Part shown: piece by piece, positions 35,080 to 52,607 of the stretch
Layout of the letters: the number at the start of each line of letters is the position of its first letter
Position numbering within the stretch: the first letter of the stretch is position 1
Assembly: GCA_002840245.1 (NCBI GenBank)
Contig: PHAA01000003.1
Span: forward strand, 1-64,000
Length of the DNA stretch: 64,000 bases
Reading direction: 5' to 3'
DNA from: Firmicutes bacterium HGW-Firmicutes-15
GTDB taxonomy: Bacteria > Bacillota > Syntrophomonadia > Syntrophomonadales > Syntrophomonadaceae
Notes under the pieces: model-generated
The model's input: the letters and a program-made list of their open reading frames with translations, nothing else
What the model was told of the DNA's origin: nothing
The model's database searches: none
Position numbers and translations under genes: made by a program

Positions 35080-36234
35080 TCACTTTTTCATATATAAATT
35101 TACTGCTATAATTTTATTGTAAGCATTACAAATGGTCTCTACAATAGATTCCACTTCATTCATATCATTGTACCTTCCATATGAAATACGAATTGCAGAT
35201 TTCGCTTGCTGTTCCGTTAAGCCTAATGCTGTTAGCACATGTGAAGGTTTATCACTTCCCGATGTACAAGCTGAACTTGTAGACACACAGATACCTTTCA
35301 AATCCAATAAGTGCATAAGTGATTCGCCGGAAGCACCATCGAAACTGAGATTGACGGTTCCGGGTAGTCGCTTTTCGGAATTGCCATTAACACGCACGGT
35401 CGGTATCCTTGTTTGAATAGCATTGACCGTTGTATCGACCATAGCTTTCAGTCGTTTTGCGGTTTCGCTCATTTTGGCAATACTCTCTTCAATAGCATAT
35501 CCCGCCGCAACTATACCCGCAACATTCTCAGTTCCCGCACGAAGTCCTCGCTCTTGTTCACCTCCGAATACCAAAGGAGATAATTTTATCATTGATTGCT
35601 TATATAGTATCCCCGTACCTTTTGCTCCATTAAACTTGTGGGCAGAAGCGGTCAAAAAATCCACCTTTAGCTCACCAACATCCACTGGGATATGACCGAC
35701 CGCCTGAACTGCATCGGTATGAAATATAATATCCCGCTTGTGCAAAAACTCTCCGATTTCCGCTATCGGTTGAATTGTTCCAATTTCGTTGTTGGCAAGC
35801 ATGATGGTTACGAGCTTTGTATTCGGTCTAACAGCAGACTTTACATCCTCAATCGAAACCCGACCGTTACTTTCAACAGGCAAATATGTGACCTCAACGC
35901 CCAATAACTCAAGCGCGCGACAAGCGTTAAGCACAGAATGATGCTCGATTGCAGAAGTGATAATGTGGATGGATTTGCCACGATAATTATCCGCAATACT
36001 ACGCAATATCCAACTATTCGCTTCGGAACCGCTGGAGGTGAACGTGATATCAGAAGACGTTGCCCCAATAGCTGCCGCAACCTGTTTGCGTGCCTGTTCA
36101 ATGGCATGTTTAGCTTTTGCCCCAAGGGAATACTGACTGGAGGCATTACCGTATTGCTCCTGTAAATACGGTAGCAATTTTTTCAAGACGCTATCCGATA
36201 TTCTTGTCGTGGCAGCATTATCGGCGTAAATCAC
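35080..36234 (-). CDS. IscS/DndA-type cysteine desulfurase
   Basis: A PLP enzyme that takes sulfur from cysteine. The start is GTG 36234 (IYADNAATT) behind AAAGGAG; a frame open to 36360 only overlaps the zinc-ribbon gene. It gives 384 aa. The PLP lysine lies in ASAHKFNGAKG near residue 197 and the catalytic cysteine in STSSACTSGSD near residue 317. It is the last gene of the BREX operon, 13 bp after the zinc-ribbon gene, so it likely supplies sulfur to BrxP, by analogy with DndA/SspA. A housekeeping Fe-S role cannot be excluded. Confidence 0.92.
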   Translation of the reverse strand: MIYADNAATTRISDSVLKKLLPYLQEQYGNASSQYSLGAKAKHAIEQARKQVAAAIGATSSDITFTSSGSEANSWILRSIADNYRGKSIHIITSAIEHHSVLNACRALELLGVEVTYLPVESNGRVSIEDVKSAVRPNTKLVTIMLANNEIGTIQPIAEIGEFLHKRDIIFHTDAVQAVGHIPVDVGELKVDFLTASAHKFNGAKGTGILYKQSMIKLSPLVFGGEQERGLRAGTENVAGIVAAGYAIEESIAKMSETAKRLKAMVDTTVNAIQTRIPTVRVNGNSEKRLPGTVNLSFDGASGESLMHLLDLKGICVSTSSACTSGSDKPSHVLTALGLTEQQAKSAIRISYGRYNDMNEVESIVETICNAYNKIIAVNLYMKK

Positions 36235-36247
36235 ACGCTCACTCCTT

Positions 36248-36445
36248 TTAGAACAAATCGCAGCCCTGTGCCTTGAACTCTTCAACTTTTTCAAGAAGGC
36301 ATTCGGTATCCACTTCCAGATACTCGGCAAGGCACTCAAGGCAATAATAGGTTTTTGCATCTTTACTCAACAGTTTTTTCGTAAGTCCTATCTCGTTTTT
36401 GTTGAGATTTTCTTTGCCGCAAACATAGCAAACCTTGCCCTTCAT
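36248..36445 (-). CDS. 65-aa zinc-ribbon protein in BREX operon
   Basis: Small protein with CYVC (C6, C9) and CLEC (C35, C38), the four ligands of a zinc ribbon, followed by an acidic helix ending in CDLF. ATG 36445 is preceded by AGAGGTG. It starts four bases after the brxL stop and is clearly a cistron of the operon. It may help the desulfurase or a nucleic-acid step; function unknown. Confidence 0.75.
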   Translation of the reverse strand: MKGKVCYVCGKENLNKNEIGLTKKLLSKDAKTYYCLECLAEYLEVDTECLLEKVEEFKAQGCDLF

Positions 36446-36449
36446 ATTG

Positions 36450-37931
36450 TTACACCTCTTTAATGCCGAAAACAGGCACATCTTTACCTTTGTATTCGCT
36501 GTCGAGAATACCGAGTTGAGTCTTTATCGTATCACGCATTCGATACGCCCGTTGCAGGCAGTATCTCTTGAAATCGGCGGCAGATATTTCGCTTGCCGAG
36601 CGGACATTCGGAAATAGTAATTTTAAGTATGCTGTGGCAATGCGCTTAACCGCTTCTGTATCGCGGGTATCCGATGCATCAGGCACTTCAACAAGTTCAT
36701 CAACGATTGCGCGATAACTCATATCGCTGCGCAGTTCGTGAAGAATAGAGCAGAAGTATTCTGAATTCAAAGCCCAACCCGATATTTTCATGTCCTCGTT
36801 CATTCGCGGAATGTTCCATCCTTTGATAAAACCATGGAAACGGTCAATCAAAGCAGATTCGTGAAATGACTTCGGCAATTCCTCAAACATATTACTAAAC
36901 CCGCCGTTATCCATAGTTTCCTTGCGAATGTTGCCGCAGAGGATAAATCCCGCATCAGCGGCACGTTCGTATGAATCAATCTTTATTATTCCGGATTCAA
37001 GGTAAGCTTTTAAGATGGTGCGCATTTCGTCCACATCGCCGAATTGTATCGTTTGTATTTCGTCCAAAACAACAAAGTCATTGTTTGCTACCAAACCCTC
37101 CGTGTGTTTGGCTTTATGGTAAAACAACGTAGCGCGACTTATTTTGCTATCGGTAGGCAAGGCACCGAAACGGCTGACACGCCCGAATAGATATGATTTA
37201 CCCGTGCCTTTGGGTGCAAGCTCAATAAGATTCAATCGCTTTTCCAAAAATGGAAGCAAACGGGTAAGCATTGTGAGTTTAGTTTCCTCGTCGGCATAAC
37301 CACTCGCGTTATAGTCTACCGCACCGAGCAGAATGTCAATCCATTCAGAAGTCGAAAATTCGGCTCTCGCATCTTTATAGTATTCAATGTCAACTGTATA
37401 AGGACAGAACGGCTTGAACGCCGTAAGCTTAATTTTGCCTTTATTGGCCCCTTTCGCTGTTGAACCGCTACCTGTTTCGGGTGAGAACAGAAAGTCCGCG
37501 TCTTCCGGTGAACGATAACCGAGTTCAACCATACCCCAAGTTTCGCCGTGAAGCAGGTCTTCCTTGCAGTTATCCCATACGCCCTCTTCGATTATACTGT
37601 CCTTGTATGTCAAACCGTAGTCCGGTAGAGCAAAGTACACCTGTTTCTTTTCCACGCTAATCTCAACTGAGATTTTTGCAAGAAAACGCACCCGCTCGTT
37701 TTCCATAACGACGCGGTTCTTAATTGAAATCCAGTCGTCTTTGCGCGGCAAGTAAGTTTGAACGAACTGCAATACCTCTTCGGCGTCAAACTGTCCACTT
37801 TCGTCTTCAAACTTCTTCAAGAGCCAGTCGCGCATAAATGACGGCAGGCTCAAAGCGGAGAAAAAGTTGCTTTTCCTCAAATCCTTATAAACGACCATTT
37901 CGTCAAAACAATTCCGCAATTTTTCAATCAT
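36450..37931 (-). CDS. brxL: BREX BrxL, short form
   Basis: A 493-aa BrxL-family AAA+ protein. The N-terminal part is of the BrxL type (FFSALSLPSFMRDWLLKKF). The Walker A is APKGTGKSYLFGR near residue 243 and Walker B VVLDEIQTI near 287. No Lon-type Ser-Lys protease domain follows, and the length fits the short BrxL group rather than the ~680-aa type 1 protein. In BREX it is needed for phage exclusion, possibly as a DNA motor. ATG follows AGGAGG. Confidence 0.85.
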   Translation of the reverse strand: MIEKLRNCFDEMVVYKDLRKSNFFSALSLPSFMRDWLLKKFEDESGQFDAEEVLQFVQTYLPRKDDWISIKNRVVMENERVRFLAKISVEISVEKKQVYFALPDYGLTYKDSIIEEGVWDNCKEDLLHGETWGMVELGYRSPEDADFLFSPETGSGSTAKGANKGKIKLTAFKPFCPYTVDIEYYKDARAEFSTSEWIDILLGAVDYNASGYADEETKLTMLTRLLPFLEKRLNLIELAPKGTGKSYLFGRVSRFGALPTDSKISRATLFYHKAKHTEGLVANNDFVVLDEIQTIQFGDVDEMRTILKAYLESGIIKIDSYERAADAGFILCGNIRKETMDNGGFSNMFEELPKSFHESALIDRFHGFIKGWNIPRMNEDMKISGWALNSEYFCSILHELRSDMSYRAIVDELVEVPDASDTRDTEAVKRIATAYLKLLFPNVRSASEISAADFKRYCLQRAYRMRDTIKTQLGILDSEYKGKDVPVFGIKEV

Positions 37932-37942
37932 TACGCGACCTC

Positions 37943-40228
37943 CTAAAACAAATTGTCAAAAGCGTCATTCTTTTTACCAGTTTCGCTTTGGACATTGATT
38001 GTAATTTTGCCTACCAAATTATCGCCGTCAAACACATCGGCGAGATACTCACCTGCTTTTGTGATGTCGGTAACAATGCGATGGTGGTTTTTGTCTATCC
38101 TTTCGGCAGGATAGGGTTTGCCTTTAATTATGATGATCACATTCCCAAGTTCCGACTTCGAGAACAAGGTAAATGCCGCTGGTTTTGCCTTGGCTTTCAG
38201 AGGGTTAGCAGTGATTATCTTCTCGACAATTTCAACCGTAGTGTCAGGGTTGGCAAGCGTCAATTCTATAATAGGAATCACAACTTCTTCCAAAGATGCG
38301 CCGCCGTGAACTTCGACGTTGGCAGCACGACTTCCCTTAAATCTGCCGTAATCAGCAAGTACTAAGTAACCGTTCCCCTCGGTAGCAAATGGTAGGTCGT
38401 ATTCGGTAGGCGAATAGTTTGGCGGTGTCTTACAGCAACGTCCACTGTGTTGGCCCTTGGTATCGGTCTCGTATTTTTCCTCTTGCTCTTTTATAACGGC
38501 AATGCGGCTCGCACCGTGGTCGCTAACAATAAGTACTTTCTTGCATTGATGAAGGGCAAGCATAGTGGCTGCTTTTTCTAAAATCTTGCCAAGAACATCT
38601 AATTCTTCGGCAAGATGAAGAGGGAGTTTTTCGTGCTGATAATCATACCCGCCGCTTTCTTTGTGCTTCAAACTGTCGAGCCGTTCGTCCTTTTCTTTTT
38701 GACCTGTCCAATCAGCAAAAAATCCTTTGTTAATCGCAGTTATTGTGGGCAAGTCAGCCTGTGCAATGTGTATGCGGAGAGAAATCCCTTTGTGCTCACA
38801 TTGCTGTTGGATAAAGCCGAGGAATTCCACACCAAGCGCATCAATCCAGTAAAGGAACGTGTCCGTCTTATCAATAGCACTTATTACTTCATTGCAGCTA
38901 CGCAAACGTGTAAATATGCGCTTTTTAGCGAGTTCCTCGACTTGTGATAAAAAGTCATCATCTATTCCATTCAGAACCTTTTGCCATTTATAACGGTCGA
39001 AGTAATTCGTGAACAGCGTGTTTAATTCGTCTCCGACTTTCCGGTCGTTAAATGTGTATTTCCAAAGGTAGTCGCTCAACGCTGAATAAGCCGATTGGGT
39101 GCGTTGTAACACAGCTTGTTTATCAATATTGGAAAACAGTGCAACAAACTCTTTCCTCTCCACCAAGGTCTGGTCAGTAAGCTTATACACACTCTCGGCG
39201 TGGTTAATCCTGTTTTCTGCGACAAATGCAGCAACATCCGATTCGGTCAGTTTCTCAACAAGGATTTTCCGCTCCTCATAGAATTTATCGAAGCGCTTAT
39301 CCGTGTGCTGTATACTAATTATCGCATCAAGAATATTGCGTTTGAAATCCGTGAACGAAGTCGTAATCTCCAACACATATCTCAAATACGAGTTCTCAAT
39401 TTCGTTTTCTTTAAGTTTTAGTGCAATGAAAAACAGCCAATTCTTATAGGAATTCCCCTTAATCCACTGAGTTAAGTTGTTCTCAGGATTACTGCCAAAT
39501 TCGTCAACAACAACACATATATCTCCATTCGCTTTTGTAAGGTCGGCAAGGAACGCAGTCCATTGACTCTCATCTCCGCAAGCCTCGTCAAGCAGAAAAA
39601 TGGGGCTGAAATGCTTAATGCCATCATATGCCGAATTTATCCTGCTTGTCGTTAGAAGTGAATTATCAAAAACTATGTTCGATTTAACACTCAAACTTAC
39701 ATAGCCGTTTTCAAGTTTAGCGATAAGTGCCTTTATGCCATCTTCAGCAGGCAAATTCAGATTAGCCGGAACAAAAACAACATTAGCATTGGTATCAGTG
39801 CTTTCGGTAAATAAAACTCTACGGATGTCAAAGCGTTTCGAATCGGCTGATTGTAGTTTGCGAATTATTTCAGACACGCCGCGAAACAGCAAAACGACAC
39901 GCGCATTGCCAATCTTCTTATCCTTAATTTCTGAAAGCCTTGTAAAAGCTATATCTTCGCCACAGAGGGCAAGATATTCGCCCAAACCCAGAACAACGAT
40001 TTTTTTGTCATTGCTTTGACTGTCAATATCAGCAAAATCAAATGTGCCAATTAGATTGTCGAGATTAGGACGTTTATCGGCGTTCCCGCAACAATCGCTG
40101 ACGCTGACAGCCTTAAGTCCTTTTTCGAGCAGAGCCGCTTTAATGTTAGTATAATTTTCATCACCAACAACGAGGAAAAAAGGCGCATTAACGCTGCTAT
40201 TAGACAGATATTTATCTACTGCGTCCAC
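37943..40228 (-). CDS. pglZ: BREX PglZ alkaline-phosphatase-fold protein
   Basis: A 761-aa PglZ with the alkaline-phosphatase fold. The metal-binding motifs are WIDALGVEFL near residue 460, SDHGASR near 572 and HGGASLEEVVIPI near 643. Members of the family are the shared marker of all BREX types. GTG start. It lies two bases downstream of brxC and is followed directly by brxL. Confidence 0.9.
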   Translation of the reverse strand: MDAVDKYLSNSSVNAPFFLVVGDENYTNIKAALLEKGLKAVSVSDCCGNADKRPNLDNLIGTFDFADIDSQSNDKKIVVLGLGEYLALCGEDIAFTRLSEIKDKKIGNARVVLLFRGVSEIIRKLQSADSKRFDIRRVLFTESTDTNANVVFVPANLNLPAEDGIKALIAKLENGYVSLSVKSNIVFDNSLLTTSRINSAYDGIKHFSPIFLLDEACGDESQWTAFLADLTKANGDICVVVDEFGSNPENNLTQWIKGNSYKNWLFFIALKLKENEIENSYLRYVLEITTSFTDFKRNILDAIISIQHTDKRFDKFYEERKILVEKLTESDVAAFVAENRINHAESVYKLTDQTLVERKEFVALFSNIDKQAVLQRTQSAYSALSDYLWKYTFNDRKVGDELNTLFTNYFDRYKWQKVLNGIDDDFLSQVEELAKKRIFTRLRSCNEVISAIDKTDTFLYWIDALGVEFLGFIQQQCEHKGISLRIHIAQADLPTITAINKGFFADWTGQKEKDERLDSLKHKESGGYDYQHEKLPLHLAEELDVLGKILEKAATMLALHQCKKVLIVSDHGASRIAVIKEQEEKYETDTKGQHSGRCCKTPPNYSPTEYDLPFATEGNGYLVLADYGRFKGSRAANVEVHGGASLEEVVIPIIELTLANPDTTVEIVEKIITANPLKAKAKPAAFTLFSKSELGNVIIIIKGKPYPAERIDKNHHRIVTDITKAGEYLADVFDGDNLVGKITINVQSETGKKNDAFDNLF

Positions 40229-40230
40229 AC

Positions 40231-43200
40231 CTATTCACCACCTCTTGTTATGATTTCAATGCCTACTGATATATTTTCGGTTACGAGTCTCTTGATGTAT
40301 TCATCACGTTGCTCAGAGGTCATAGCACTAAGGATAGCTAAGGCACGGTCAGAACCACCTGCATTGTATTCTGCTTCAGCAAGTTTGCGGATTGTTTCTT
40401 TAACTTGTGGGTGTGAAAACCAATCATAAGGCTCAATCGTCAAGCGGTCGAGTTTATCCAGCACAACCCCAATATCTTTCAATATTTTGGAATACTCTCC
40501 GAAGATGTGCTTGCGGAACGCCTCTTTGCATTTTGAATCGTCGCTCAAGTCCGCAAAGAATGTCGCAGTTTCAAGGTGAGCCAACGCGGTCTTGATTGCG
40601 AATTCAGGCGGATTATGCTGGTTAAGCGTTTCAAATACTTTCTTTGAGTTGTCATAGTCGTTGCCTACGACAAGACATAAAATTGGTATCTTGTGGTTCC
40701 GCGACCACTCTTTCGGGTTGTTTGTGCCTGTTTTTTCTTTCCACAATGCAAACAGCTTTTCTTTAAGCTGCCCCTTGCGGAATTCCTCCGCTTTTTCCTT
40801 GACTTTGACATTGCATTCGCTTGGCGAGAGCGAGAACATTCCAAGAGGAAGCTTGCTAATAATATCGTCAATGTCGTCAGGACTGAAACCTTCAAGGTAT
40901 GGAGAATAGACATCGTCGAACACCGGCTTTTCATCACTCAAGAAGGCGGCAAGCCGACTGCTGTTTGCTTGAAGCTCAGCTTGGAACGCTTTCAACTGGT
41001 CGGGCAGTATCTCATTTTGTGCGTAGATTTTCGATAGGAAATCAAACAGCTTAGTCAGTTCCGGGCATTTCACTTTCGCATGTTCGGAGGAAACGTGGAT
41101 AAATTTCAGCTTTTCACGCCAGTCGCTAAAGCACTTCTGACGTGAATTGGCATTCACTCCGAGGATGTTGTTACTTTCAAGAACAACCCCATATTCGGTA
41201 AGCAGTTTGCGAATTTCGCTTTCGCCCGTGGATATAATCCACAAGCAGGAACGCTCCACATTAAACCGTTTGCGAATGTCGTTAATCAAATTTCCTTCAG
41301 CGCCTATCGCTTTCGCAAGGTCGAGGATTTTGCCATCTTCAAACGTTTTGAGGAATTCGAGCATTCCTTTTTGGCAGTTCCCTTTTGTGATAAGCGCATG
41401 AAGATTGTCACCAAGGTTCGATTTAACTTCAGCGACCTTGCCGATTTCAATCGCAACTTGGTGTGCTTCTTTGCCCTCTTTTTGCACAAGGGTTATGTAT
41501 TTCTCAACAATATCATAAACACCATAATCATCAACCTCTGAAAGAACCCATACCGGCAATCCAAGCAAACGCATTTTCGTTTCTACAGCATGAGCTGCCT
41601 GCCCCGCCGTTGCACAGGAATTTGGCAACACTTCAAATGCTTTTTCGGTAAGGGCATAGAATGCCATTTCCGCAGAAGTCATATTGACGATATAGGTGTC
41701 TTTATATTTTGCATGATTTGTGTTGCCAATATAGATTCCAAGCATTTCGGCAAGTTTGTCTGGGCTCATTGATTCATGCCCGTTCTGTGAATCCCAGTAG
41801 CGATACGGCTCGCCGCCGTATTCTTTCAGCAAGAAGCCCGCAAGAAAAGCCGACAGGTTGCTTGGGGCAAACCCATAATCGTTCTCTAAAACATCATAGA
41901 GTTCACGAATGGAAATCTGCCCATCACGATTGAAGGCCTCTGTTATCTTTTCTTCAATGCGGATTTTAATCTTTGAGATTAGAAGCGAGGAAAGTGTCGG
42001 CTGTTCCCAGTATCTGTCCACTTTCCATACGCTGTTCGGTAGGATTGCTAAGGTGTATTTTTCAATGCCGCCGACTGCGTTGCCGGAGGTCTGTAAAGCA
42101 CCGTGTTTCGCACTCGCTCTCCCTTGAGTGAGTTTTAACATATTCTCGTTCAAACCCTTTTTGAAATCAAATATCGAGGGAAACTTCATAATGACCGTGC
42201 TCTCCAAAGCAGCTATAACTCCGTTCGCATTCGGATAACGTTCGCCGTCTTTATTGGAGTAGGAAGATACGATAAACGCACCTTTTTCAATGCGGTCTTT
42301 CCAGTCTGTATCAAGGACACGCTTTGCCTTGTTGTTGTAGTCTTTCGAGAGCGTGTCATCGTTTCTGCTGTAATACATCGACACTGCTGAAAATTCCACA
42401 TACTGCTCAAAAGCATCTGCCCCAAGTGGTGTGGAAAGCGCGTCGATAAAGGTGATATGCGTGTATTCAGGATTTGCCGCAGCTTCTTTTATAGCTTTAC
42501 GGAAATTCGGCACTTCCGCATCATCTTTGGCAAAAGCGATAACGGCAAAGAAACGCCAATTGCTCTGCTTGTCGCGGAGCGCATTTATTGTCTTTGTGAA
42601 GTCGGGATACGTTACCACAAGTAGCTTCCCATTCGGCGGGTCAACATCAAAGCGCAGTTTTAGAGCCGACGTAAGCGGAAGCACGCTCGCAAGCCCTCCC
42701 TCGGTTACGAGCTTGGCGGTCGTTGTGGACGTGCGAATGTCCTTCTTGTGCTTATCAATTTTAGTTTGGTCTCCCGCAAGCGCAGCGGCAGCGTAGACTT
42801 CAATGCCATTCCCGATAGGTTTCTTATACAGAACTCCGTCCTTAACAAGTTTCTTGGCAATGTTAACAGCAGAGTTGCCCTCTAACGCATTCACACCCTC
42901 GAACGCAAGCGAAAGGTTTTTATCCGTCACGCGGAACAATTCCATTTCGCCACGCGTGCGTTGGTCGATTGCCTGTATGATGAGTATAGTCTTCAATACG
43001 GCCTTTTCTTTTTCCTGCAAATCTTGTTGACGCGGGAACGTATCGAGAATAGATTGAATGTCGGGTGTAAGATTGTTCCTGCCTTTCTCATAGAAAAAGT
43101 TCCACAGCAAATCAACCGTCAAGAGCGGGCGGTCATCCTCCGGTGTGTTGTTGGCTATAAACCATTGAAACGCCTTAACATCGTCGTTATTGGTCGTTTT

Positions 43201-44397
43201 GATGAAATCAAACATACTGCGTTGATTCGCCTCAAACGCAGTCGCTATATACTTCAAAACCATGGCCGCATAAGGGTGGAGCGGCATAATCTTTTTAATG
43301 ACATTCGGATTGGTGATACCCGCAGCTTTCATAACAGCTGTACGGGATTCCGGCACCCAACTGTTGATATCATCTGCGATTTTATTCCAACTCGTCTGAG
43401 CAGACGGGATAACTTCAAGCGCACTGCCGATAAGGTCGAACGCTATGCTGTCAGGCAAGGTGATTTCCGTGAACTCATACCTTTGCTGGACGACCTTCCA
43501 TGCTTGGTCTTCCTTGTTCGCAATGACACTGGAAGTCTGATGGGTTACGATAACAAAATAGAACGATGTACTCTGCGCAAGGCTAGCAATTTTTTGGAAC
43601 TCGTCAAGCGAGTTGCGGTTATTCTTGAAGAAAGAGGAAAACTCGTCCCAAACAAGAACGATTTTGATGTCGTTCTTGGTGATTATATCCTTTATCCAGT
43701 CAATTAGTCTATCGGTGTTTAGTTCAAACGCCGTTATGCCTCGCTTGTCAGAAAGATAGAAGATGTTCTCCATTAACTCTTTCAATTCGCCGCCCTTACG
43801 CAGATCTTTCAGGACTTCATCGGCAGTTGACTGGGAAAAACGGCTCGTAAACTCCGGCAATTCCAAATACTCGTCAAAGTGCTTCTTATTCAGCGGATCT
43901 TCAAGCCAAGCAATAACGCTTTCTTTTAACGTGTTCTCGCCTGTGTATTCAACGCCCGATTCGACAAGTGCGGCTTTTATACTGTCCTGTACAGCAAGTA
44001 GCAGGTCGCGAGTGCCGTTAATGCCACCGCTCGCATAGCGATACGCTGTGACAATACGACGAAACTTATGCCCGATAAGTTTTTCGAGCAGGTCTTTATT
44101 CGTGTTCGTTTGGAGCGCGTCAAACTTGTCCCAATAGGCACGAAGTTCAGGTTCCGGCACTTCGAGGATCTTCTTCAAGGCATAGCCGCATTGGCTCTTT
44201 CCCGTGCCGTATGCGCCGTGAATCCACACAGGCTTTTTATCACCCGAAAGCATACGCTCAACGTGGCGCAGGAGCGTGATGAAGGTTTCGTGAGGATATG
44301 TATTCGCCCAAGGAGCGCCAGCGCGGATTGCCTCCTCGTCGATGCAGGGGAAATACAGCTCGTTTATATTGAAATACTCAATATACTTATTGGCCAT
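40231..44397 (-). CDS. brxC: BREX BrxC/PglY-type P-loop ATPase
   Basis: A 1388-aa P-loop protein. The Walker A is GAYGTGKS at residues 61-68 and a Walker B-like VLVWDEFSSFF is near 247. The remainder is helical. BrxC proteins are large ATPases of BREX that probably organise the complex. The start follows AAGGAGGG and lies directly after the brxP stop. A 248-aa frame on the opposite strand inside it is only a shadow. Confidence 0.9.
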   Translation of the reverse strand: MANKYIEYFNINELYFPCIDEEAIRAGAPWANTYPHETFITLLRHVERMLSGDKKPVWIHGAYGTGKSQCGYALKKILEVPEPELRAYWDKFDALQTNTNKDLLEKLIGHKFRRIVTAYRYASGGINGTRDLLLAVQDSIKAALVESGVEYTGENTLKESVIAWLEDPLNKKHFDEYLELPEFTSRFSQSTADEVLKDLRKGGELKELMENIFYLSDKRGITAFELNTDRLIDWIKDIITKNDIKIVLVWDEFSSFFKNNRNSLDEFQKIASLAQSTSFYFVIVTHQTSSVIANKEDQAWKVVQQRYEFTEITLPDSIAFDLIGSALEVIPSAQTSWNKIADDINSWVPESRTAVMKAAGITNPNVIKKIMPLHPYAAMVLKYIATAFEANQRSMFDFIKTTNNDDVKAFQWFIANNTPEDDRPLLTVDLLWNFFYEKGRNNLTPDIQSILDTFPRQQDLQEKEKAVLKTILIIQAIDQRTRGEMELFRVTDKNLSLAFEGVNALEGNSAVNIAKKLVKDGVLYKKPIGNGIEVYAAAALAGDQTKIDKHKKDIRTSTTTAKLVTEGGLASVLPLTSALKLRFDVDPPNGKLLVVTYPDFTKTINALRDKQSNWRFFAVIAFAKDDAEVPNFRKAIKEAAANPEYTHITFIDALSTPLGADAFEQYVEFSAVSMYYSRNDDTLSKDYNNKAKRVLDTDWKDRIEKGAFIVSSYSNKDGERYPNANGVIAALESTVIMKFPSIFDFKKGLNENMLKLTQGRASAKHGALQTSGNAVGGIEKYTLAILPNSVWKVDRYWEQPTLSSLLISKIKIRIEEKITEAFNRDGQISIRELYDVLENDYGFAPSNLSAFLAGFLLKEYGGEPYRYWDSQNGHESMSPDKLAEMLGIYIGNTNHAKYKDTYIVNMTSAEMAFYALTEKAFEVLPNSCATAGQAAHAVETKMRLLGLPVWVLSEVDDYGVYDIVEKYITLVQKEGKEAHQVAIEIGKVAEVKSNLGDNLHALITKGNCQKGMLEFLKTFEDGKILDLAKAIGAEGNLINDIRKRFNVERSCLWIISTGESEIRKLLTEYGVVLESNNILGVNANSRQKCFSDWREKLKFIHVSSEHAKVKCPELTKLFDFLSKIYAQNEILPDQLKAFQAELQANSSRLAAFLSDEKPVFDDVYSPYLEGFSPDDIDDIISKLPLGMFSLSPSECNVKVKEKAEEFRKGQLKEKLFALWKEKTGTNNPKEWSRNHKIPILCLVVGNDYDNSKKVFETLNQHNPPEFAIKTALAHLETATFFADLSDDSKCKEAFRKHIFGEYSKILKDIGVVLDKLDRLTIEPYDWFSHPQVKETIRKLAEAEYNAGGSDRALAILSAMTSEQRDEYIKRLVTENISVGIEIITRGGE

Positions 44398-44399
44398 CT

Positions 44400-46691
44400 T
44401 TAGTTGCCCTCCTTAAACAGTTCCAGCACGTCGGCAGACGTTTTGTCGTCTTTAAGCGAGATTTTATCAAGGTCATTGCTGAACGTGGCGTTGATGAAGT
44501 CCGGTTTGCTTGCCGAAAGCCCCAAGAGTATGGGTATCATAGCTTCGCGGTCAAGCCCGAAAATGCGTGTGGGCGACACGCCGTCACGTTCGATGTTGTC
44601 GGAGAGCAGTTCGTTTAGTGTAAACTCCTTATGGTCGTTGCACTTCTCGGCGAACTTGTAAAGAGCATAGAGGATTACACGGAGGTCGGATACTGAGCAG
44701 GTTGTCCGCGCCAAGTTATCGCCATCTACATAGCCAAAGTTCAGCTTTGTCCCGAGCGGAGTTTCTGTGAGACGTCTAAATGCGCCACATATCGACTTTG
44801 TAACAGGTGGCTTTACGTCAAATGAAACAAGCATACTTTCAACAGTCTTTCTGTCATATACTCTGCCTATATCAAGATTCCGAATATACCAATCCACTTG
44901 CGGATTTTCATTCACAAGGTTAATCAGTATAAGCCCCATTGCAGTCGCGGTATCCCAACCATTTGCTAATATTGTGTCGGCAAAATCGGTGAGTGCATTT
45001 TTGTCTGCAATTCCAGCGTCTTTAAGAAAACGCTTGAAGAATGAAATCTGCTCAGGACCCAACCCGTGATCGGTAAAGAAACCATTGCCTTTCTCGAATA
45101 GTTTCTTGAACCATTCAGTTTTTGGTGCGTGGTTTGACATAGTGTTCAGGCTTTTCATAGTTTTCCCTCCTCCTGTTGGATGTCTTAATGAATGATACCT
45201 TAGGCAGCCGGTTTCTATTTGGTGACATTCATGGCAATGCAAACAACCATCAATTTTTACATCGGCGGTTTCAAACGAAATACATTGGCTCGGACAATTT
45301 GCTTCACAGACTTTGCATCCCACACAATAAGCCGCTTTGTGTGCCGTTTGCCGAAACAACCTGCTAAATAGTGGTTGCTCCTTTAACAATCTTTCTGCGA
45401 CACTTACGATAAAACCATTCTTGGTTTTATTATAGCTAATCAATTCTTGGTCTGCATCGGAAAGGGTTTTTACCCATTCGTCCCAACTCGAAGTCGGACT
45501 AACAACGTCAATGATAAATCTGCCGTTTTCATTCTTTTCAGTATATCGAATTTCATTGTCACTCAAATCGCGTCCATTCTTTCGTGCATTCCAACCGCCA
45601 TTCGAGATATAATCTTCGCCCGATATGTTTTTTCTCCCGTTTGAATGCTTTATCAAGTCAAAATAGTTATTTACCTCTGTTGAGTAATTCGTATATTCTA
45701 TGTAGCTTGATTTTCCACCGCCCATGGGACAGCAGATGCAACCTACCCTTGAACTGCCCTTCTTGTATGCCTCGTTAATAATTACATTCCTCGAATATAT
45801 ATATAACCAAACCTCAGCGGAAGTCCATTCTAATATTGAATTGTGGCTGTATTGTCCCTTTTGTTTCTTGCCGTAATTCTCATAATCGTACTCGGCACGT
45901 GTGGCACTTTCTTCGGCACGAACACCTACATAAGCAAGACCCGTGTAATTTTGCTTACCAGTCACTTCACGGAGTTTAAGCGTTTGCGGTGTGGATTTAT
46001 GCACGGAACAACACCAACGCAATACCCTCGACGGCGGCGCAAATAAATCCCAACTTTCACTTGGTGATAAATGCGAAGCCGATCGATAGAATTTTATACC
46101 TTCTTCGCGGCATTGCTCCTCGAATTTATTGATAACCTCGTAAGTATCAGGGAATTCCATACCGGTGTCACCGAATACCACAACAAAACTGTCGTGCGGC
46201 AAAACTCTTTTAACGAGGTCAAGCAAAACACAACTGTCTTTCCCACCAGAGAATGCGACGTGGAAGATATCGAGTTTGTCCTTATACTTTTCATATACTG
46301 AGAGGATTTTCTTTGCGGTCGTCCCCTCAAGCCAGCCGAGTATTTCTCGGTTCGCCTCCACCATTCCCGCTATGTCAACAGGGCGGAGTTTGGTATTCTT
46401 CGGCTCCGGCATTACGGGTTTGCCGTCCTCGTTGTTCAGAATTATAATTTCGGGTGCTTGGTAGACGTTGCCGCCGCGCAGTTGCGCCACCATTCGCCCG
46501 TAGTAGAAGTAACGGTTTGCCTCTGCCCACATATAAGGCGTGTCTGACTGTTTGTCATACTGCCAATATTTATCGAAACCGAGCAAATCAAGCTCAGGAG
46601 CATAAACGGGACGGGGCTCTTTTGAAAAACCTGTCGGCGTGGAATTCAGCAGAATCCCGCCGGTCTTATTGCAATAGGTATATGAATACAT
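44400..46691 (-). CDS. brxP: BREX type 4 BrxP, PAPS-reductase/DndC-like
   Basis: A 763-aa fusion. An N-terminal region is followed by an ATP-pyrophosphatase PP-loop with SGGKDS at residues 148-153 and Fe-S-type cysteines C227/C228 and C318/C320/C321 (GCICCP). A ferredoxin-like module then carries CxxCxxCxxxC at 456-466 and CxxCxxC plus C496 (483-496). A C-terminal domain from about 520 is unnamed by me, perhaps DUF4007-like. The DndC/SspD relatives insert sulfur into the DNA backbone. First of the four BREX type 4 core genes. Confidence 0.88.
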   Translation of the reverse strand: MYSYTYCNKTGGILLNSTPTGFSKEPRPVYAPELDLLGFDKYWQYDKQSDTPYMWAEANRYFYYGRMVAQLRGGNVYQAPEIIILNNEDGKPVMPEPKNTKLRPVDIAGMVEANREILGWLEGTTAKKILSVYEKYKDKLDIFHVAFSGGKDSCVLLDLVKRVLPHDSFVVVFGDTGMEFPDTYEVINKFEEQCREEGIKFYRSASHLSPSESWDLFAPPSRVLRWCCSVHKSTPQTLKLREVTGKQNYTGLAYVGVRAEESATRAEYDYENYGKKQKGQYSHNSILEWTSAEVWLYIYSRNVIINEAYKKGSSRVGCICCPMGGGKSSYIEYTNYSTEVNNYFDLIKHSNGRKNISGEDYISNGGWNARKNGRDLSDNEIRYTEKNENGRFIIDVVSPTSSWDEWVKTLSDADQELISYNKTKNGFIVSVAERLLKEQPLFSRLFRQTAHKAAYCVGCKVCEANCPSQCISFETADVKIDGCLHCHECHQIETGCLRYHSLRHPTGGGKTMKSLNTMSNHAPKTEWFKKLFEKGNGFFTDHGLGPEQISFFKRFLKDAGIADKNALTDFADTILANGWDTATAMGLILINLVNENPQVDWYIRNLDIGRVYDRKTVESMLVSFDVKPPVTKSICGAFRRLTETPLGTKLNFGYVDGDNLARTTCSVSDLRVILYALYKFAEKCNDHKEFTLNELLSDNIERDGVSPTRIFGLDREAMIPILLGLSASKPDFINATFSNDLDKISLKDDKTSADVLELFKEGN

Positions 46692-46724
46692 TGCAGGGTT
46701 CCACCACTTTTCATTTTAATATAG

Positions 46725-49247
46725 TTAAGCCCGGAGGGCTGTAGCCTGCTTTATTAGTTCAACGATTTTCGCATATCGCCGCTGCGATGTGTACCCACTT
46801 GTCGCCAAGAAATTAAACACCGTCTGATTATCAAGGCTTATTCCTGACTTCGCTACAGCGTCAGCCATAATATCGAAATACGTCAATCGGCTGTGCTTGC
46901 GTACGATGACACCCGCGTTTGTGGAGTTGACCGATAGCTCCTCAAATCGAAAGTTATCCGAAAACCGCCGACAGTAGCTTTCAAGCAGGAATAAGTTCCA
47001 AGGTTGTCCGCAATGCGGGAAGAGTGCGAACGTCGTCACGGTTCGAAGCGGCGTATACTCGCCGCCGTTCACAAACTGATCGATGGCTTTATCAATCGCG
47101 CTTTTATCAAAATCAACATATCTCTCTGCAACGAAGGCGTTCTCGTAGGTGCGAACCATCACGTCGTAACCAGCTTCCATTGGTATCCAACGGTGGCATT
47201 CGCCTGTTAAGTGTTTTTCAAATTTGAGCAAGTCGTCCAGCGTACATCGGTCAAGCATTCTGCAATGTTCTTCCATAATGGATTTAGCGTCAATGCCATC
47301 GCCTTTTCGCGTTATAATCTTGCCGTGCTGTTCATAATTGCGTGATAGACATATATGATACACGGCATTATGTATGGCGGTTACGCTGAGACCGTAATTC
47401 TTTTCAGGGATTTCACCAAGCGGAGCATAGGCGATAGACGCATATTTATGCGTTTTGATTTCAGTATCAGCAAAACGCACTATTTCTGTGGTTTCATCGT
47501 CTGTGATGTCAATCTTGCTGACGTGCGTAAATTCGCCCGTGTTGTTCCAAATGAAGTCTGCATTCTGCCCAAGGGCGTGCTTTATCCTCTCTATGGGGAC
47601 GTATTCTAACCGTTCGGCAAGTTGCTCATAGGTCAGCAACACATAATCGCCCCAAACGCGGAGGATTTCTCTTTCCAGTACATTAAAGACCGACTCGGTT
47701 GTGTAACCGAAATAAGTCTGCGTGAAAGATAGCCTTGGGAACACTTCTCTCAAAATGCCCACCAACACATCCTCCGAGATAACGCTTTCGTCAAATAGCC
47801 AGTTTTCATTCTTGGCGTAGAACTCGGCGTAGAATATGGCTTGCGCTCCGTCAGCAAAATAATTCTCGACAAGACCTTTAATTTGTTCTTTCGTCTCTGA
47901 CGAAACGGAATAGATTTTGCCGTCAAAGGTAGTCCCGGACGCCACAATGTACTTATTTAGTTCCTCGTCAGACAGCGATATTTCCTCGCCTAACTCGTTA
48001 GAGTAAAAAGTCCGAAACCTTGATAACTCTATCGAAGAGTTCAGCCTAAAGCCATTAGCAAAGCGCGCAGAGATTACGTCTGCCACTTTTTCAATCACTG
48101 CAAGGTCAAAGTTTTCTTTTGCCAATGTCGTAACTGGATCGGGGTGCCTTAAAAGGAACTCCTTAAACATTCTCAATGTTCGTATGTAGCCGTTTGCACC
48201 ATTTTCAGGATTGCCGACCTTGTTCACATCTCTTAAGTAGTCCCTAATCTTATCACGAGCAACCAAAAGTGCTTCTTCATTAGTGAGGACTTCAGTTAAA
48301 CTGATTCCAACATCGTTATTCTTAAGGAAATACGCATCGGATTTATGCATATCAACAGTCGAATCAGCCCACTCAGGATGTTGTAGACGAATATAGTTCC
48401 TAAACTCATCTTTGAGACCGTACAGATATCCGTCATCCATCACAGTGTCCGCAACAGAATCCTTTGCTTCACTGCTGATATTCGGTTGAGGAAAAGAAAC
48501 TAAATTACCGCTATTTATGTTTTCCCCAAGAGCAGACAGATGTTCCAAGTACCTCCTGTATACAGCTAACCCCGCAGAAAGCGAACCCGATGTGACGCTG
48601 TTTACTGTTTTATAATTCAACGCACTTCTAAATGCATCCCAAAGCGCATCCAATTCGGCAACCGTATGGCAAGAAAACGCATCTCTGTTCTCAAGTGTAA
48701 GCGCGAGTTTTCGTGGTGCGGAGCGCAAGGCCCTGATATATGAACGAGCCACATTTTCCAAATATAACGTCCCATTCGCATTGGGTTGGGTCACCAACCA
48801 AGCGATAACATCATCCGGATTCATAGGCTTCAGTGATTCATCTTTTCCTTTTTCAACACCCGCCCCTGCAACATCTTCAGTACTAGTGGCTTTTCGTGTC
48901 CACGGTTTTTCTTTAAGGAATTTCAAATATAACTGCCCGGCAACGATGAAGACCTTATATGTATTCTTTTCAGTAACACGAAGCAGCTTGGTCTCCAACA
49001 ATCTATTGTAAACGGGTTTAAAAACGCTGTGTTGTGTAATGTCCCAAACGCTAACAAAACTTATTTTCTTGCGAAGAGCATACTCGGAAATTTTGTCCAG
49101 GCAGGCTACGCACACAGAGGGGGAGTATTTTTTTGCATTGCCAACGGACAGCCATTCAAGAAACCCATCTCTTAATGAAACAGATGGTAAGATAGTATGC
49201 TGATTGGCATATGCGTTTTCATTATTAAAGGTCTCGCGACCTGTCAT
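46725..49247 (-). CDS. 840-aa protein of unknown function heading the BREX operon
   Basis: A large, mostly helical protein with no motif I can name. There are weak core-binding-domain-like stretches at the N-terminus and around residue 300 (RTLRMFKEFLLRHPD). A region resembling a winged helix (TYEQLAERLEYVPIERI) is near residue 590, and a conserved-looking tail reads FNFLATSGYTSQRRY. I chose ATG 49247 with GGGGAGG ten bases before; the frame reaches 49283. It is 33 bp before brxP and on the same strand. A DNA-recognition or recruitment role is a guess. Confidence 0.75.
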   Translation of the reverse strand: MTGRETFNNENAYANQHTILPSVSLRDGFLEWLSVGNAKKYSPSVCVACLDKISEYALRKKISFVSVWDITQHSVFKPVYNRLLETKLLRVTEKNTYKVFIVAGQLYLKFLKEKPWTRKATSTEDVAGAGVEKGKDESLKPMNPDDVIAWLVTQPNANGTLYLENVARSYIRALRSAPRKLALTLENRDAFSCHTVAELDALWDAFRSALNYKTVNSVTSGSLSAGLAVYRRYLEHLSALGENINSGNLVSFPQPNISSEAKDSVADTVMDDGYLYGLKDEFRNYIRLQHPEWADSTVDMHKSDAYFLKNNDVGISLTEVLTNEEALLVARDKIRDYLRDVNKVGNPENGANGYIRTLRMFKEFLLRHPDPVTTLAKENFDLAVIEKVADVISARFANGFRLNSSIELSRFRTFYSNELGEEISLSDEELNKYIVASGTTFDGKIYSVSSETKEQIKGLVENYFADGAQAIFYAEFYAKNENWLFDESVISEDVLVGILREVFPRLSFTQTYFGYTTESVFNVLEREILRVWGDYVLLTYEQLAERLEYVPIERIKHALGQNADFIWNNTGEFTHVSKIDITDDETTEIVRFADTEIKTHKYASIAYAPLGEIPEKNYGLSVTAIHNAVYHICLSRNYEQHGKIITRKGDGIDAKSIMEEHCRMLDRCTLDDLLKFEKHLTGECHRWIPMEAGYDVMVRTYENAFVAERYVDFDKSAIDKAIDQFVNGGEYTPLRTVTTFALFPHCGQPWNLFLLESYCRRFSDNFRFEELSVNSTNAGVIVRKHSRLTYFDIMADAVAKSGISLDNQTVFNFLATSGYTSQRRYAKIVELIKQATALRA

Positions 49248-49415
49248 TGATCCGTGCCTCCCCGTTCGATAATTTTTAACCATGCGCTGGTTCTCAGTGT
49301 CACCTTAGAACCAACCTTTAAGACTTCTATGTTAATGCATTCTATTCCTGCATATAATCCCATATTTCATCATTTATCGGTAATTAAATACATTATGGTC
49401 AGATAATCATACTAT

Positions 49416-52400
49416 TTATACCGTCACTGCCTCTTTCAATACAAACCCCGGCATTGGCTCGCGCATTTTCCACACAATACTTAAAGGGGCGGACCCATAA
49501 TGGCTTACATAATCGGCTAAACCGATACATGTGTAGGGTACAGCTGCCTGTCCTTCTTTCTTATAATCCCGAACGAAAATAAGCACCCGATTGCCATTGC
49601 GTTGTTGATTAATGTATCTTTGGCCGGTGGCCGACTCCACACTGGTTATACTTTGTGATTGCCAGTGGAACTGCTCTTCATTAATGGCATAATCCCGGTA
49701 CATGGTAGACGGCGAATAATCCTTATCGGATTTATTCAGCGTAACAAAGAATACATCTAACCCCTTATCTGGGAGATATAGTACCCCTTCCTGAAAATGT
49801 TTCCGTTTCCTTTCGGTGTGCCGACCTAAAGCAACCAGTATTTGGTCCAGCGTATAACTGCAATATAAGTCTAGAGGGCATTCAAAATCTAAATCCAATG
49901 GCTTATCCACGAATTCTATGCGTTCGTATTGATACTGCAATAAGCCCATCAACTCGTTGTAGGTCAGGTCATCTTTTATCACCGCATAAATGGCCTCTTC
50001 CATGTTCGCAAAGGTCGTGTCCAAATCATCCAGGCCTTTGCTATAAACCGTATAATGTAACATGGTCAGCATAGTTCGTTCTACTCCGGTAATTGCCTCC
50101 CCCATATGACTATGTTTCAGTTTGATTTTGGGCAATATGTCTAACAAAAATTTTATCCAACGTCGGGAATTGGCGCCCGACAATCGCAGAAAAGCATTGG
50201 CAAACATCCGCACGTACAGATCATTTTCCGGGTATTTATCAACTAACCCCGCCTCGGACGCTAGTGAACCTAACGTACAACGTTTTGAATATAAGTCTTT
50301 AGGCTGGACATGATAGCTCGCAAAAAATTCATTGGCATCTATCCCGGCATGAATTTGCATATAATCTCTCAGTTTCAGTTTTATATTGCGTTTATTATTA
50401 ATGGTATTTTTGATATTCTCCAAGATATATTCCTGGGCCTGACGTTCCATCTGGATCGAGCACCCACGTGGCGTATGAATAAAGCCATGTTCAATTTCGT
50501 ACTCCACCGTCCTGCGAGTTCGAGCCAACAGCGCCCGAAAGCGTTCTTCAAAGTTGAACTTTCTATTAGCCTGTCCCACAAAATCAAGTACGGTCAGGGC
50601 TTCTTTCCCTTCGCAAAGTCTTAAACCTCGGCCCAGTTGCTGAATGAATACGGTTAAACTTTCGGTTGGCCGTAAGAATAGAACTGTGTTTATTTCGGGA
50701 ATATCTACACCTTCATTATAGAGGTCCACTACAAAAATAAAATTTATCTCCTTCTTAACCAGTCGTTGTTTTACGGTGCTGCGTAATGATTCTTCTGATT
50801 CGGCAACTAAATAGTCAGCTGCAATCCCGGCCTGGTTGAAATTATCTGCCATATAGCGTGCATGTTCTTTGGAAACACAAAATCCTATCCCGATGATGTC
50901 CGATAAATCTCCACAGTAACGATCTATGGCCTGAACTATATTACTGACCCGACGCTCGGCTTGAGCTGCTTCAAATACAAATAAATTATCAAGTTGTTTT
51001 TGATCATATTTACCAGCCGACCAACGTACATTTTGCAAGCTCACCGTATCGGTCACACAGAAGTAATGAAATGAACTCAACAATTTCCGTTCTATGGCTT
51101 CATTCAATCGCAGTTCAGCCGCAATGCGGCCATTGAAATATTGGAACACGTCTTTGCCATCCGGCCTTTCTGGGGTGGCGGTTAAACCCAGTAATACTCG
51201 GGGCTGATAGTATTCCAGTAAGTCCTCATAGGAAGGAGCAGCGGCATGGTGGAATTCATCGATAATAATAAAATCATAATAATCTGGGGCAGCAATAGTA
51301 GTAAGCTCCTTGGAATTGAGTGACTGAATGGATACAAAGAGGTGGTCCAGGCTATCCGCGTAACTACCTCCCACCATCAGGGAACCGAAGTTATAATCCT
51401 TTAATATAGCACGAAAACAGTCGCGGCTTTGTTGAAGAATTTCTTTGCGATGGGCTACAAAAAGCAACCGATTAAGCTTGCCCGGATTCTCCTGAATAAA
51501 CCGTTTATAATCAAAAGCAGCTACAACGGTTTTTCCGGTACCTGTAGCTGCTATAACCAAATTTCTATAGGAATTATGAATCTCTCTTTCCGCCTTGAGT
51601 TTATCCAATATCTCTTGTTGAAAATAATAGGGTGTGATATCAAAATTGAAAGCGAATTTCCCGTCTTCTTCCTGGGCATTATAGCGTTCTGATTTAAGAG
51701 CTTTACGCAATCTGTCCGAATCCAACTCTGGGACAAAATTTATGAATTCCCGGCTGTACCAATAGGATTCAAAGGTAGCTTGGATTTTCTTTAGGATATC
51801 CTTGGAATCATATTCACTCAGCTTAATGTTCCATTCCAAACCGCTAGTCATCGCTGATTCAGAAATATTGGATGAACCGATGTAGGCTGAACTAAACCCA
51901 CTATCGCGCCAGAATACATAGGTCTTGGCATGCAGACGAGTCCTTTCCGTGTCATAGGAAATGCGTATCTCCGTATTGGGTAAGCTGCTGAGCTTCTCAA
52001 CCGCCTTGAAATCAGTAGCTCCCAGATAGGAGGTGGTAATAACGCGTAAACTTCCGCCGCGGTATGTAAATTCTTTAAGTTCATCCAGAATCAGCCGCAG
52101 TCCGCTCCACTTAATAAATGAAACGAGCAACTCTATACGATCACAGGATAAGATCTCTTTTTTTAACTCAGACACCATGCTAGGTTCATGGGTTGCTCCG
52201 GTGAAAAGGGAGTTTTCTGCAATAGAGGTATCAGGACGAATTATGGATTTTTTCTTATCAACTAAAGCCAGCAACAACTTGGCATCCTGGTGGATAATAT
52301 GATTTCTAACCATAAGCGCCAGTTCCCTATTATGTCTAAATCCTCTCTCGCCCTTTTCTATAACAGTTGCAATATGCTCGATTAAACTGTTACACAAGCT

Positions 52401-52607
52401 TATTCGATTATCGACGGCCTCATTTTCGCCCTCAATATAGTCCAAAACATCTCTGATAAGAAGCGCCAGGTATTCCGCCAAAATCTTGGATGACTCCGCT
52501 GAATCTATCGGACTAGTTTGAATCCTGGTCATCTCATTATTAATGCGATCCAGGTGCTGGTTTATTATTTGATTAATGACTTGTTCATATAGGCCAAACT
52601 GTAACAT
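49416..52607 (-). CDS. PLD nuclease-SF2 helicase protein (DUF3427 type)
   Basis: A 1063-aa protein. The phospholipase-D motif is near 225-250 (RLHAKTYVF, YIGSSNISES). The SF2 helicase has AATGTGKT near 356, IIDEFHH near 452, TATPERPDG near 482 and a QQLGRGLR motif VI near 655. A C-terminal DUF3427-like domain follows. This type is common in defence islands; DNA degradation is plausible. It is 42 bp downstream of the Nudix gene and on the strand of the BREX operon. Confidence 0.87.
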   Translation of the reverse strand: MLQFGLYEQVINQIINQHLDRINNEMTRIQTSPIDSAESSKILAEYLALLIRDVLDYIEGENEAVDNRISLCNSLIEHIATVIEKGERGFRHNRELALMVRNHIIHQDAKLLLALVDKKKSIIRPDTSIAENSLFTGATHEPSMVSELKKEILSCDRIELLVSFIKWSGLRLILDELKEFTYRGGSLRVITTSYLGATDFKAVEKLSSLPNTEIRISYDTERTRLHAKTYVFWRDSGFSSAYIGSSNISESAMTSGLEWNIKLSEYDSKDILKKIQATFESYWYSREFINFVPELDSDRLRKALKSERYNAQEEDGKFAFNFDITPYYFQQEILDKLKAEREIHNSYRNLVIAATGTGKTVVAAFDYKRFIQENPGKLNRLLFVAHRKEILQQSRDCFRAILKDYNFGSLMVGGSYADSLDHLFVSIQSLNSKELTTIAAPDYYDFIIIDEFHHAAAPSYEDLLEYYQPRVLLGLTATPERPDGKDVFQYFNGRIAAELRLNEAIERKLLSSFHYFCVTDTVSLQNVRWSAGKYDQKQLDNLFVFEAAQAERRVSNIVQAIDRYCGDLSDIIGIGFCVSKEHARYMADNFNQAGIAADYLVAESEESLRSTVKQRLVKKEINFIFVVDLYNEGVDIPEINTVLFLRPTESLTVFIQQLGRGLRLCEGKEALTVLDFVGQANRKFNFEERFRALLARTRRTVEYEIEHGFIHTPRGCSIQMERQAQEYILENIKNTINNKRNIKLKLRDYMQIHAGIDANEFFASYHVQPKDLYSKRCTLGSLASEAGLVDKYPENDLYVRMFANAFLRLSGANSRRWIKFLLDILPKIKLKHSHMGEAITGVERTMLTMLHYTVYSKGLDDLDTTFANMEEAIYAVIKDDLTYNELMGLLQYQYERIEFVDKPLDLDFECPLDLYCSYTLDQILVALGRHTERKRKHFQEGVLYLPDKGLDVFFVTLNKSDKDYSPSTMYRDYAINEEQFHWQSQSITSVESATGQRYINQQRNGNRVLIFVRDYKKEGQAAVPYTCIGLADYVSHYGSAPLSIVWKMREPMPGFVLKEAVTV

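What the first reader, a model, noticed from the sequence alone, without database searches (positions are those of the whole stretch)
35080..49247. BREX type 4 operon linked to its own sulfur source
Seven genes run without gaps over 14 kb: unknown 840-aa protein, brxP, brxC, pglZ, short brxL, zinc ribbon, cysteine desulfurase. The core order is that of BREX type 4. There is no PglX methyltransferase, and the two ends of the operon contribute sulfur chemistry (desulfurase; PP-loop/ferredoxin BrxP). I infer self-marking by a phosphorothioate or related sulfur modification instead of methylation.
Basis: partly seen in the sequence, partly recalled or inferred. Interest (0 to 1): 0.85.

Follow-up and report, generated by a model that had tools for sequence, protein, structure and literature searches.

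The report
Sulfur-type BREX operon with unlisted gene
This is an anti-phage operon of a known kind (BREX type 4, which marks host DNA with sulfur), but its first gene encodes an unnamed, mix-and-match DNA-binding-like protein found in about half of the related operons sampled, and no database used here has a model for it.

Summary
The minus-strand operon at 49,283-35,080 is BREX type 4: unknown ORF, BrxP, BrxC, PglZ, short BrxL, zinc ribbon and cysteine desulfurase. Every gap inside it is 33 nt or less.

Type-4 BREX is described as phosphorothioate-making, and the desulfurase and zinc finger are reported as common extra genes.

What is not in the papers I could read is the first gene (852 aa). 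It matches nothing in Pfam, PADLOC or NCBIfam. Across 733 genomes of three phyla, all 13 full-length matches to its C-terminal core lie directly upstream of brxP. Its N-terminal modules are swapped between near relatives: four loci with 82-90% identical BrxP carry B-D, A-B, A or no modules. One module is shared with a McrB-type protein. Other members carry sigma-70 region-4 or integrase-SAM-like domains. The core is predicted, at low confidence, to be a winged-helix array. In every intact locus that has the desulfurase, this gene is present.

My best reading is a DNA-recognition subunit feeding the BrxP/BrxC machine. A transcription regulator is the main rival. Function is untested.

The parts
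46725..49283 (-). Unknown first gene (852 aa; 840 aa if it starts at 49247): N-terminal modules A, B, C plus a conserved C-terminal core
   Evidence: No Pfam/PADLOC/NCBIfam match. Homologues directly upstream of brxP.
48891..49196 (-). Module A (residues 30-131), shared with relatives and with the HARE-HTH protein of L056
48510..48836 (-). Module B (residues 150-258), homologous to the N-terminus of a McrB-type AAA protein in L006
   Evidence: hhalign 97.5%, 7e-12; AAA_5 in L006
48144..48434 (-). Module C (residues 284-380), seen in the window and, by BLAST, in the protein of L005
46728..48143 (-). Conserved C-terminal core (residues 381-852), predicted helical/winged-helix array
   Evidence: Alignment A2; AlphaFold2 mean pLDDT 55.6, pTM 0.31; secondary structure only
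44400..46691 (-). BrxP: PP-loop/PAPS-reductase domain, two ferredoxin-type Cys clusters, C-terminal SspB/DUF4007-type domain
   Evidence: PADLOC BrxP 5.4e-257; PAPS_reduct 3e-31; SspB-like C-terminus and 12 invariant Cys
40231..44397 (-). BrxC ATPase, 1388 aa
   Evidence: PADLOC BrxC, 1705.7 bits
37943..40228 (-). PglZ, type-4 class, 761 aa
   Evidence: NCBIfam BREX_PglZ_4 4.3e-144; PADLOC 1.6e-198
36450..37931 (-). Short BrxL (493 aa): N-terminal domain and ATPase, no room for the Lon domain
   Evidence: PF13337, PF20442; PADLOC BrxL model of 482 positions, 1.5e-211
36248..36445 (-). Small zinc-ribbon protein (CxxC..CxxC)
   Evidence: ORF and ribosome-binding site; conserved downstream of brxL in relatives
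35080..36234 (-). DndA/SspA/NifS-type cysteine desulfurase with SSACTSG
   Evidence: PADLOC DndA 2.3e-140; GTG start after AAGGAG; 68-75% identical to BREX-linked enzymes elsewhere
49416..52607 (-). Neighbour, probably auxiliary and not core: PLD + SF2 helicase + DUF3427 restriction-type protein
   Evidence: Pfam; PADLOC mREase_IV 1.5e-210; 132 nt upstream of the unknown gene

Best explanation
The locus is a type-4 BREX operon. By homology and published work, the desulfurase takes sulfur from cysteine, BrxP (with its PP-loop, Fe-S clusters and SspB-like domain) puts it into the DNA backbone as a phosphorothioate, guided by BrxC, and PglZ and BrxL act on unmarked phage DNA. These steps are inferred for this organism. 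The added proposal concerns the first gene. It most likely encodes a DNA-recognition subunit of this machine: a conserved multi-winged-helix core that works with BrxP/BrxC, carrying exchangeable N-terminal modules that read a DNA sequence or DNA state. It would supply the target choice that the PglX target-recognition domain supplies in the other BREX types. That it is a conserved modular component of one branch of type-4 BREX is shown. The role in recognition is inferred.
For: Type-4 identity. Phosphorothioate chemistry: PMC11931770 and PMC12839542. First gene: in 733 genomes of three phyla, all 13 full-core matches are immediately upstream of brxP (with contexts). In many loci its stop overlaps the brxP start (e.g. 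L008, L013, L088). On a BrxP tree of 31 loci the gene needs 2 changes, against a shuffled mean of 10.4 and 0 of 500 shuffles as low. Module turnover at a near-constant partner: L008, L010, L013 and L090 share 82-90% BrxP identity and 70-81% core identity, but carry B-D, A-B, A and no modules. Module B is homologous to the N-terminus of a McrB-type protein. Other members have Sigma70_r4 or Phage_int_SAM_1. The core has no conserved catalytic-type residue pattern, and its predicted secondary structure is a winged-helix array.
Against: About a third of the sampled type-4 loci have no such gene, so it is not needed for phosphorothioation in general. SspB/DUF4007 in BrxP could supply specificity alone. 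L088 and L090 carry the core with no N-terminal module. Sigma-70 region-4 and alpha-CTD-like modules are also what a transcription regulator would carry. The structure models are poor (pLDDT 43.6 and 55.6) and the fold search found nothing at E <= 0.001. The core of L014/L015 is only about 50% identical to its neighbours' cores while BrxP is 67-75% identical, so core and BrxP do not evolve strictly together.
Confidence: 0.5

Rival explanations
1. The first gene is a large transcription regulator (sigma/alpha-CTD/winged-helix type) that controls expression of the BREX operon, for example on infection. It takes no part in modification or restriction.
For: Sigma70_r4 in L049, L050 and L061. A distant relative in L100 adds an RNA polymerase alpha-CTD-like domain. 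Two sampled type-4 loci (L052, L060) have instead a full sigma-70 gene (regions 1.1, 1.2, 2, 3, 4) about 28 nt upstream of brxP. It is the first gene of the operon.
Against: Very long for an operon regulator (500-1225 aa). It is encoded tightly against brxP, often overlapping its start codon, which suggests stoichiometric production. N-terminal modules turn over fast while the operon genes stay constant. One module is shared with a McrB-type AAA protein.
Confidence: 0.25
2. The first gene is a sensor or activator that recognises features of incoming DNA (for example phage-modified bases) and triggers PglZ/BrxL. The desulfurase and BrxP do the marking independently.
For: Module B is shared with a McrB-type protein. 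A HARE-HTH domain is fused to module A in L056; PMC10853773 describes HARE-HTH as recognising DNA with modified bases.
Against: No nuclease or NTPase domain of its own. McrB N-terminal modules are varied and not all bind modified DNA (general knowledge). Hard to separate from the recognition-subunit model by sequence alone.
Confidence: 0.2
3. An ordinary, fully explained type-4 BREX operon. The first gene is a loosely linked accessory defence gene of no special role.
For: Six of the seven genes are described in PMC12839542. The gene is absent from one branch of type-4 BREX.
Against: 13 of 13 full-core matches adjacent to brxP, across bacteria and archaea. Tree clustering. In 9 intact loci with the desulfurase the gene is always present.
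Confidence: 0.05

Closest known systems
BREX type 4 (brxPCZL)
   Same: Gene set and order BrxP-BrxC-PglZ-BrxL, type-4 PglZ class, no PglX, zinc finger and cysteine desulfurase downstream as in PMC12839542
   Different: Has an extra first gene that neither the type-4 section nor the passages I searched of PMC12839542 list; its supplements could not be read
Ssp system (SspABCD)
   Same: BrxP corresponds to SspD plus SspB fused (C-terminus matches SspB); BrxC resembles SspC; desulfurase matches SspA
   Different: PglZ and BrxL in place of SspE or SspFGH; fused BrxP; extra multi-domain first gene
Dnd and CxC-DndE (PbeABCD) systems
   Same: DndA-like desulfurase. In L100 and L109 a distant relative of the first gene (sigma r4 + wHTH-type core) lies directly upstream of PbeA-type helicase and PbeC/DndD-type ATPase genes
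   Different: No DndD/DndE here; the relation of the cores is partial (7e-12 and 5e-8)
McrB-type restriction proteins
   Same: Module B is homologous to the N-terminal module of the AAA protein in L006
   Different: No GTPase/AAA domain in the BREX protein
HsdS / PglX target-recognition domains
   Same: By analogy only: variable recognition part on a constant partner
   Different: No family match to such domains found; not a member

Membership tests
BREX type 4 | BrxP (PAPS-reductase type) in place of PglX | tested here: met
   PADLOC BrxP 5.4e-257; no methyltransferase ORF in the operon
BREX type 4 | BrxC ATPase, PglZ of the type-4 class and BrxL in the order P-C-Z-L | tested here: met
   (BREX_PglZ_4 4.3e-144)
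BREX type 4 | DUF4007/SspB-like domain fused to the reductase | tested here: met
   hhalign of the BrxP C-terminus with SspB, 97.2%, 1E-10 over 249 columns; Pfam DUF4007 itself does not reach threshold
BREX type 4 | Phosphorothioate in host DNA | not testable with these tools
   Needs LC-MS/MS or PT-seq
BREX type 4 | Restriction of phage | not testable with these tools
   Needs plating assays
DndA/SspA cysteine desulfurase | Class-V aminotransferase fold with the SSACTSG active-site loop | tested here: met
   PF00266 3.7e-86; PADLOC DndA 2.3e-140; motif visible in the ORF. The TIGR03235 DndA equivalog cut-off is not reached (353 against 480 bits), so it is DndA-like rather than canonical DndA
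Family of the first gene (unnamed) | C-terminal core directly upstream of brxP | tested here: met
McrB | GTP-hydrolysing AAA domain | tested here: not met
   No AAA match in the 852-aa protein; only module B is shared
Sigma-70 factor | Sigma70 region 2 and region 4 | tested here: not met
   Window protein has no sigma domain; some relatives have region 4 only
BrxA / DUF4007 tandem wHTH | Sequence-profile similarity to DUF4007 | tested here: not met
   hhalign of the core with BrxP C-terminus 1.0% and with SspB 0.2%; BrxA itself was not tested

The most novel reading that the evidence does not exclude
Type-4 BREX has a branch in which sequence (or DNA-state) specificity of phosphorothioation is set by a dedicated, swappable multi-domain recognition protein, a phosphorothioate counterpart of HsdS or the PglX target-recognition domain, with distant relatives also serving CxC-DndE (Pbe) systems.
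Probability: 0.35. Interest if true: 0.75.

Novelty: new variant of a known kind. Interest (0 to 1): 0.48.

Why it matters
How type-4 BREX chooses its modification sites without PglX is, as far as I know, open. A co-encoded protein whose modules differ between loci with nearly identical BrxP gives a direct test: swap the first gene and see whether the phosphorothioate motif changes. If it does, this is a swappable specificity subunit for DNA backbone modification. If it does not, the gene is still a conserved component missing from the curated models of defence systems searched here. The sulfur-marking part of the finding is already established.

Tried and rejected
Pfam, PADLOC and NCBIfam for the first gene: no match. 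PHROGs: none for the window protein, and single weak matches in other members.

PDB by sequence profile: best E 0.17-0.3, a designed protein and an ATP synthase subunit, rejected as chance.

AlphaFold2 of the full protein (pLDDT 43.6) and of the core (55.6) with nine sequences: too poor for domain claims beyond secondary structure. Foldseek gave no hit at E <= 0.001; many of the weak hits are winged-helix repressors (DtxR, MntR, YodB), not significant.

Relatedness of the core to SspB/DUF4007: rejected. Modules A, B and C as copies of one repeat: rejected by hhalign.

Viral contigs and plasmids for the first gene: none.

Pfam PglZ (PF08665) misses this PglZ, so its absence from that search says nothing.

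The PADLOC BrxP model at E <= 0.001 rings in 92% of genomes through PAPS-reductase and ferredoxin domains; only matches around 1e-120 or stronger, or split copies with BREX neighbours, were treated as BrxP.

Promoter and terminator scans in the region: no more than chance.
Full report
OBSERVATION. The seven genes are present on the minus strand, in the order given: unknown protein (46,725-49,283), BrxP (44,400-46,691), BrxC (40,231-44,397), PglZ (37,943-40,228), BrxL (36,450-37,931), zinc ribbon (36,248-36,445) and cysteine desulfurase (35,080-36,234). Gaps inside the operon are 33, 2, 2, 11, 4 and 13 nt. Most starts have a clear ribosome-binding site. PADLOC and NCBIfam assign BrxP, BrxC, PglZ of the type-4 class, BrxL and a DndA/SspA-type desulfurase with very strong scores. 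BrxL is short (493 aa), as is the PADLOC model it matches best (482 positions).

BrxP. It holds the PP-loop SGGKDS and a PAPS-reductase domain. Across 18 BrxP aligned here, 12 cysteines are invariant: 227, 228, 318, 321 (a CC...CxxC pattern) and the eight of two ferredoxin-like clusters (456, 459, 462, 466, 483, 486, 489, 496). Its C-terminal third matches SspB over its whole length (hhalign 97.2%, 1E-10).

INTERPRETATION. Sulfur marking in place of methylation is published. PMC11931770 lists brxPCZL among phosphorothioate-synthesis families. PMC12839542 calls type-4 BREX phosphorothioation-based, and reports a cysteine desulfurase in 255 of 457 taxa, often with a small zinc finger. The desulfurase is a dedicated lineage: BREX-linked enzymes in Deltaproteobacteria, Synergistaceae, Clostridia and a Methanoregula MAG are 68-75% identical to it, while the host's next desulfurase is 44% identical. 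That other enzyme could in principle substitute, as the authors of PMC12839542 argue for loci without one.

THE FIRST GENE. The 852-aa protein matches no model in Pfam, PADLOC or NCBIfam. A homology search of genome contigs with it alone returned eight loci in bacteria and an archaeon, all directly upstream of brxP. Those eight were found through this gene, so they cannot be used for prevalence. I therefore also sampled loci through BrxP in three phyla and read upstream. About half of the BrxP-sampled loci have a relative of the first gene there; two have a related protein with a different C-terminus (L056, L059); two have a complete sigma-70 gene (L052, L060); about a third have nothing recognisable. 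In the reverse direction, a profile of the C-terminal core (19 sequences) found 13 full-length matches in 733 genomes, all 13 immediately upstream of brxP. Several of these sequences were in the profile, but their position next to brxP is independent of that.

TREE. On a BrxP tree of 31 loci the presence of the gene needs two changes (shuffled mean 10.4; 0 of 500 shuffles as low). BrxP splits into a branch mainly with and a branch mainly without the gene. This is a quick tree with SH-aLRT support only, and it includes the loci found through the first gene. The desulfurase was found at nine intact loci, all of which have the first gene; loci without the first gene never had it. The converse fails (L050, L051, L054, L056, L089).

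MODULES. The N-terminus is modular and the C-terminal core constant: window A-B-C-core; L010, L014, L015, L051 A-B-core; L013 A-core; L011 B-D-core; L008 and L009 B-D-core; L072 B-core; L074 several B copies; L088 and L090 core only. L049, L050 and L061 carry Sigma70_r4 and L054 Phage_int_SAM_1 before the core. L056 has module A with HARE-HTH before a different C-terminus. Module B is homologous to the N-terminus of a McrB-type AAA protein in an unrelated locus (hhalign 97.5%, 7e-12). L008, L010, L013 and L090 have BrxP 82-90% identical and cores 70-81% identical, yet four different architectures. Some ORFs are broken by stops or frameshifts (L008, L009, L072, L074), which in draft assemblies may be errors.

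STRUCTURE. AlphaFold2 with nine sequences gave pLDDT 43.6 for the full protein and 55.6 for the core. The core's secondary structure reads as a series of helix-helix-helix-strand-strand units typical of winged helices. The PDB fold search had no hit at E <= 0.001, and many of its weak hits are winged-helix regulators. I treat this as a hint only. The core has few invariant residues across divergent members and no acid/His/Lys/Cys pattern that would suggest catalysis.

MECHANISM. Shown: a conserved, modular protein encoded against BrxP in one branch of type-4 BREX. Inferred from homology and literature: desulfurase to BrxP to DNA sulfur transfer, and PglZ/BrxL restriction. Inferred more weakly: the first gene reads DNA and sets the target, because constant core plus fast-changing recognition modules is the pattern of specificity determinants, and because this BREX type lacks PglX and its target-recognition domain. 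The strongest rival is a transcription regulator, given sigma-region-4 and alpha-CTD-like modules in some members and complete sigma-70 genes in the same slot in two loci. A sensor of incoming DNA is the third.

WIDER LINK. Distant relatives lie directly upstream of PbeA-type helicase and PbeC/DndD-type ATPase genes in L100 (PADLOC PbeA 5e-225, PbeC 8e-174) and, by reading the ORFs, in L109. The core similarity there is partial (7e-12, 5e-8). The main text I read of the two surveys (PMC12839542, PMC10853773) does not describe such a protein. Their supplements and the Yuan et al. paper were not available, so priority is unverified.

VERDICT. The first gene is the part that is new relative to what I could check: a new variant of a known kind, of moderate interest, with a clear swap experiment to test it.

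Noticed in passing
window 49416-52607 (-): PLD + SF2 helicase + DUF3427 protein (type IV restriction-like; also a weaker match to PbeA) 132 nt upstream of the first gene, same strand; probably an auxiliary restriction enzyme.
   Followed up: partly
L052:14127-15608 (-) and L060:4978-6423 (+): A complete sigma-70 factor (regions 1.1 to 4) encoded about 28 nt upstream of brxP in type-4 BREX loci of two families; a sigma factor inside a defence operon is unusual.
   Followed up: partly
L100:7041-14246 and L109:253-8473: Large protein with sigma region-4-like HTH (and alpha-CTD/HhH in L100) directly upstream of PbeA-type helicase and PbeC/DndD-type ATPase genes; possibly a shared regulator or recognition subunit of phosphorothioate-linked systems.
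   Followed up: partly
L049:6162-6878 (+): A 238-aa gene between the first gene and brxP with a CxxC...CPxCH pattern that looks like an HNH-type nuclease (read by eye; no significant Pfam match).
   Followed up: no
L090:4634-8352: brxP of an archaeal locus is interrupted after about 110 codons by a segment carrying a 375-aa ORF on the other strand; looks like an insertion into the modification gene.
   Followed up: no
L056:4856-6463 and L059:4710-6101: A second class of protein in the same slot upstream of brxP: modules A + HARE-HTH, or D, with a shared but different C-terminus.
   Followed up: partly
L062:904-3963 (+): 1019-aa protein without family match upstream of a UvrD-like helicase and an SspB/C/D-type cluster.
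   Followed up: no
L074:3272-6239: A relative of the first gene with several tandem copies of module B next to a broken brxP (no BrxC, PglZ or BrxL match follows); looks like a decaying locus.
   Followed up: no
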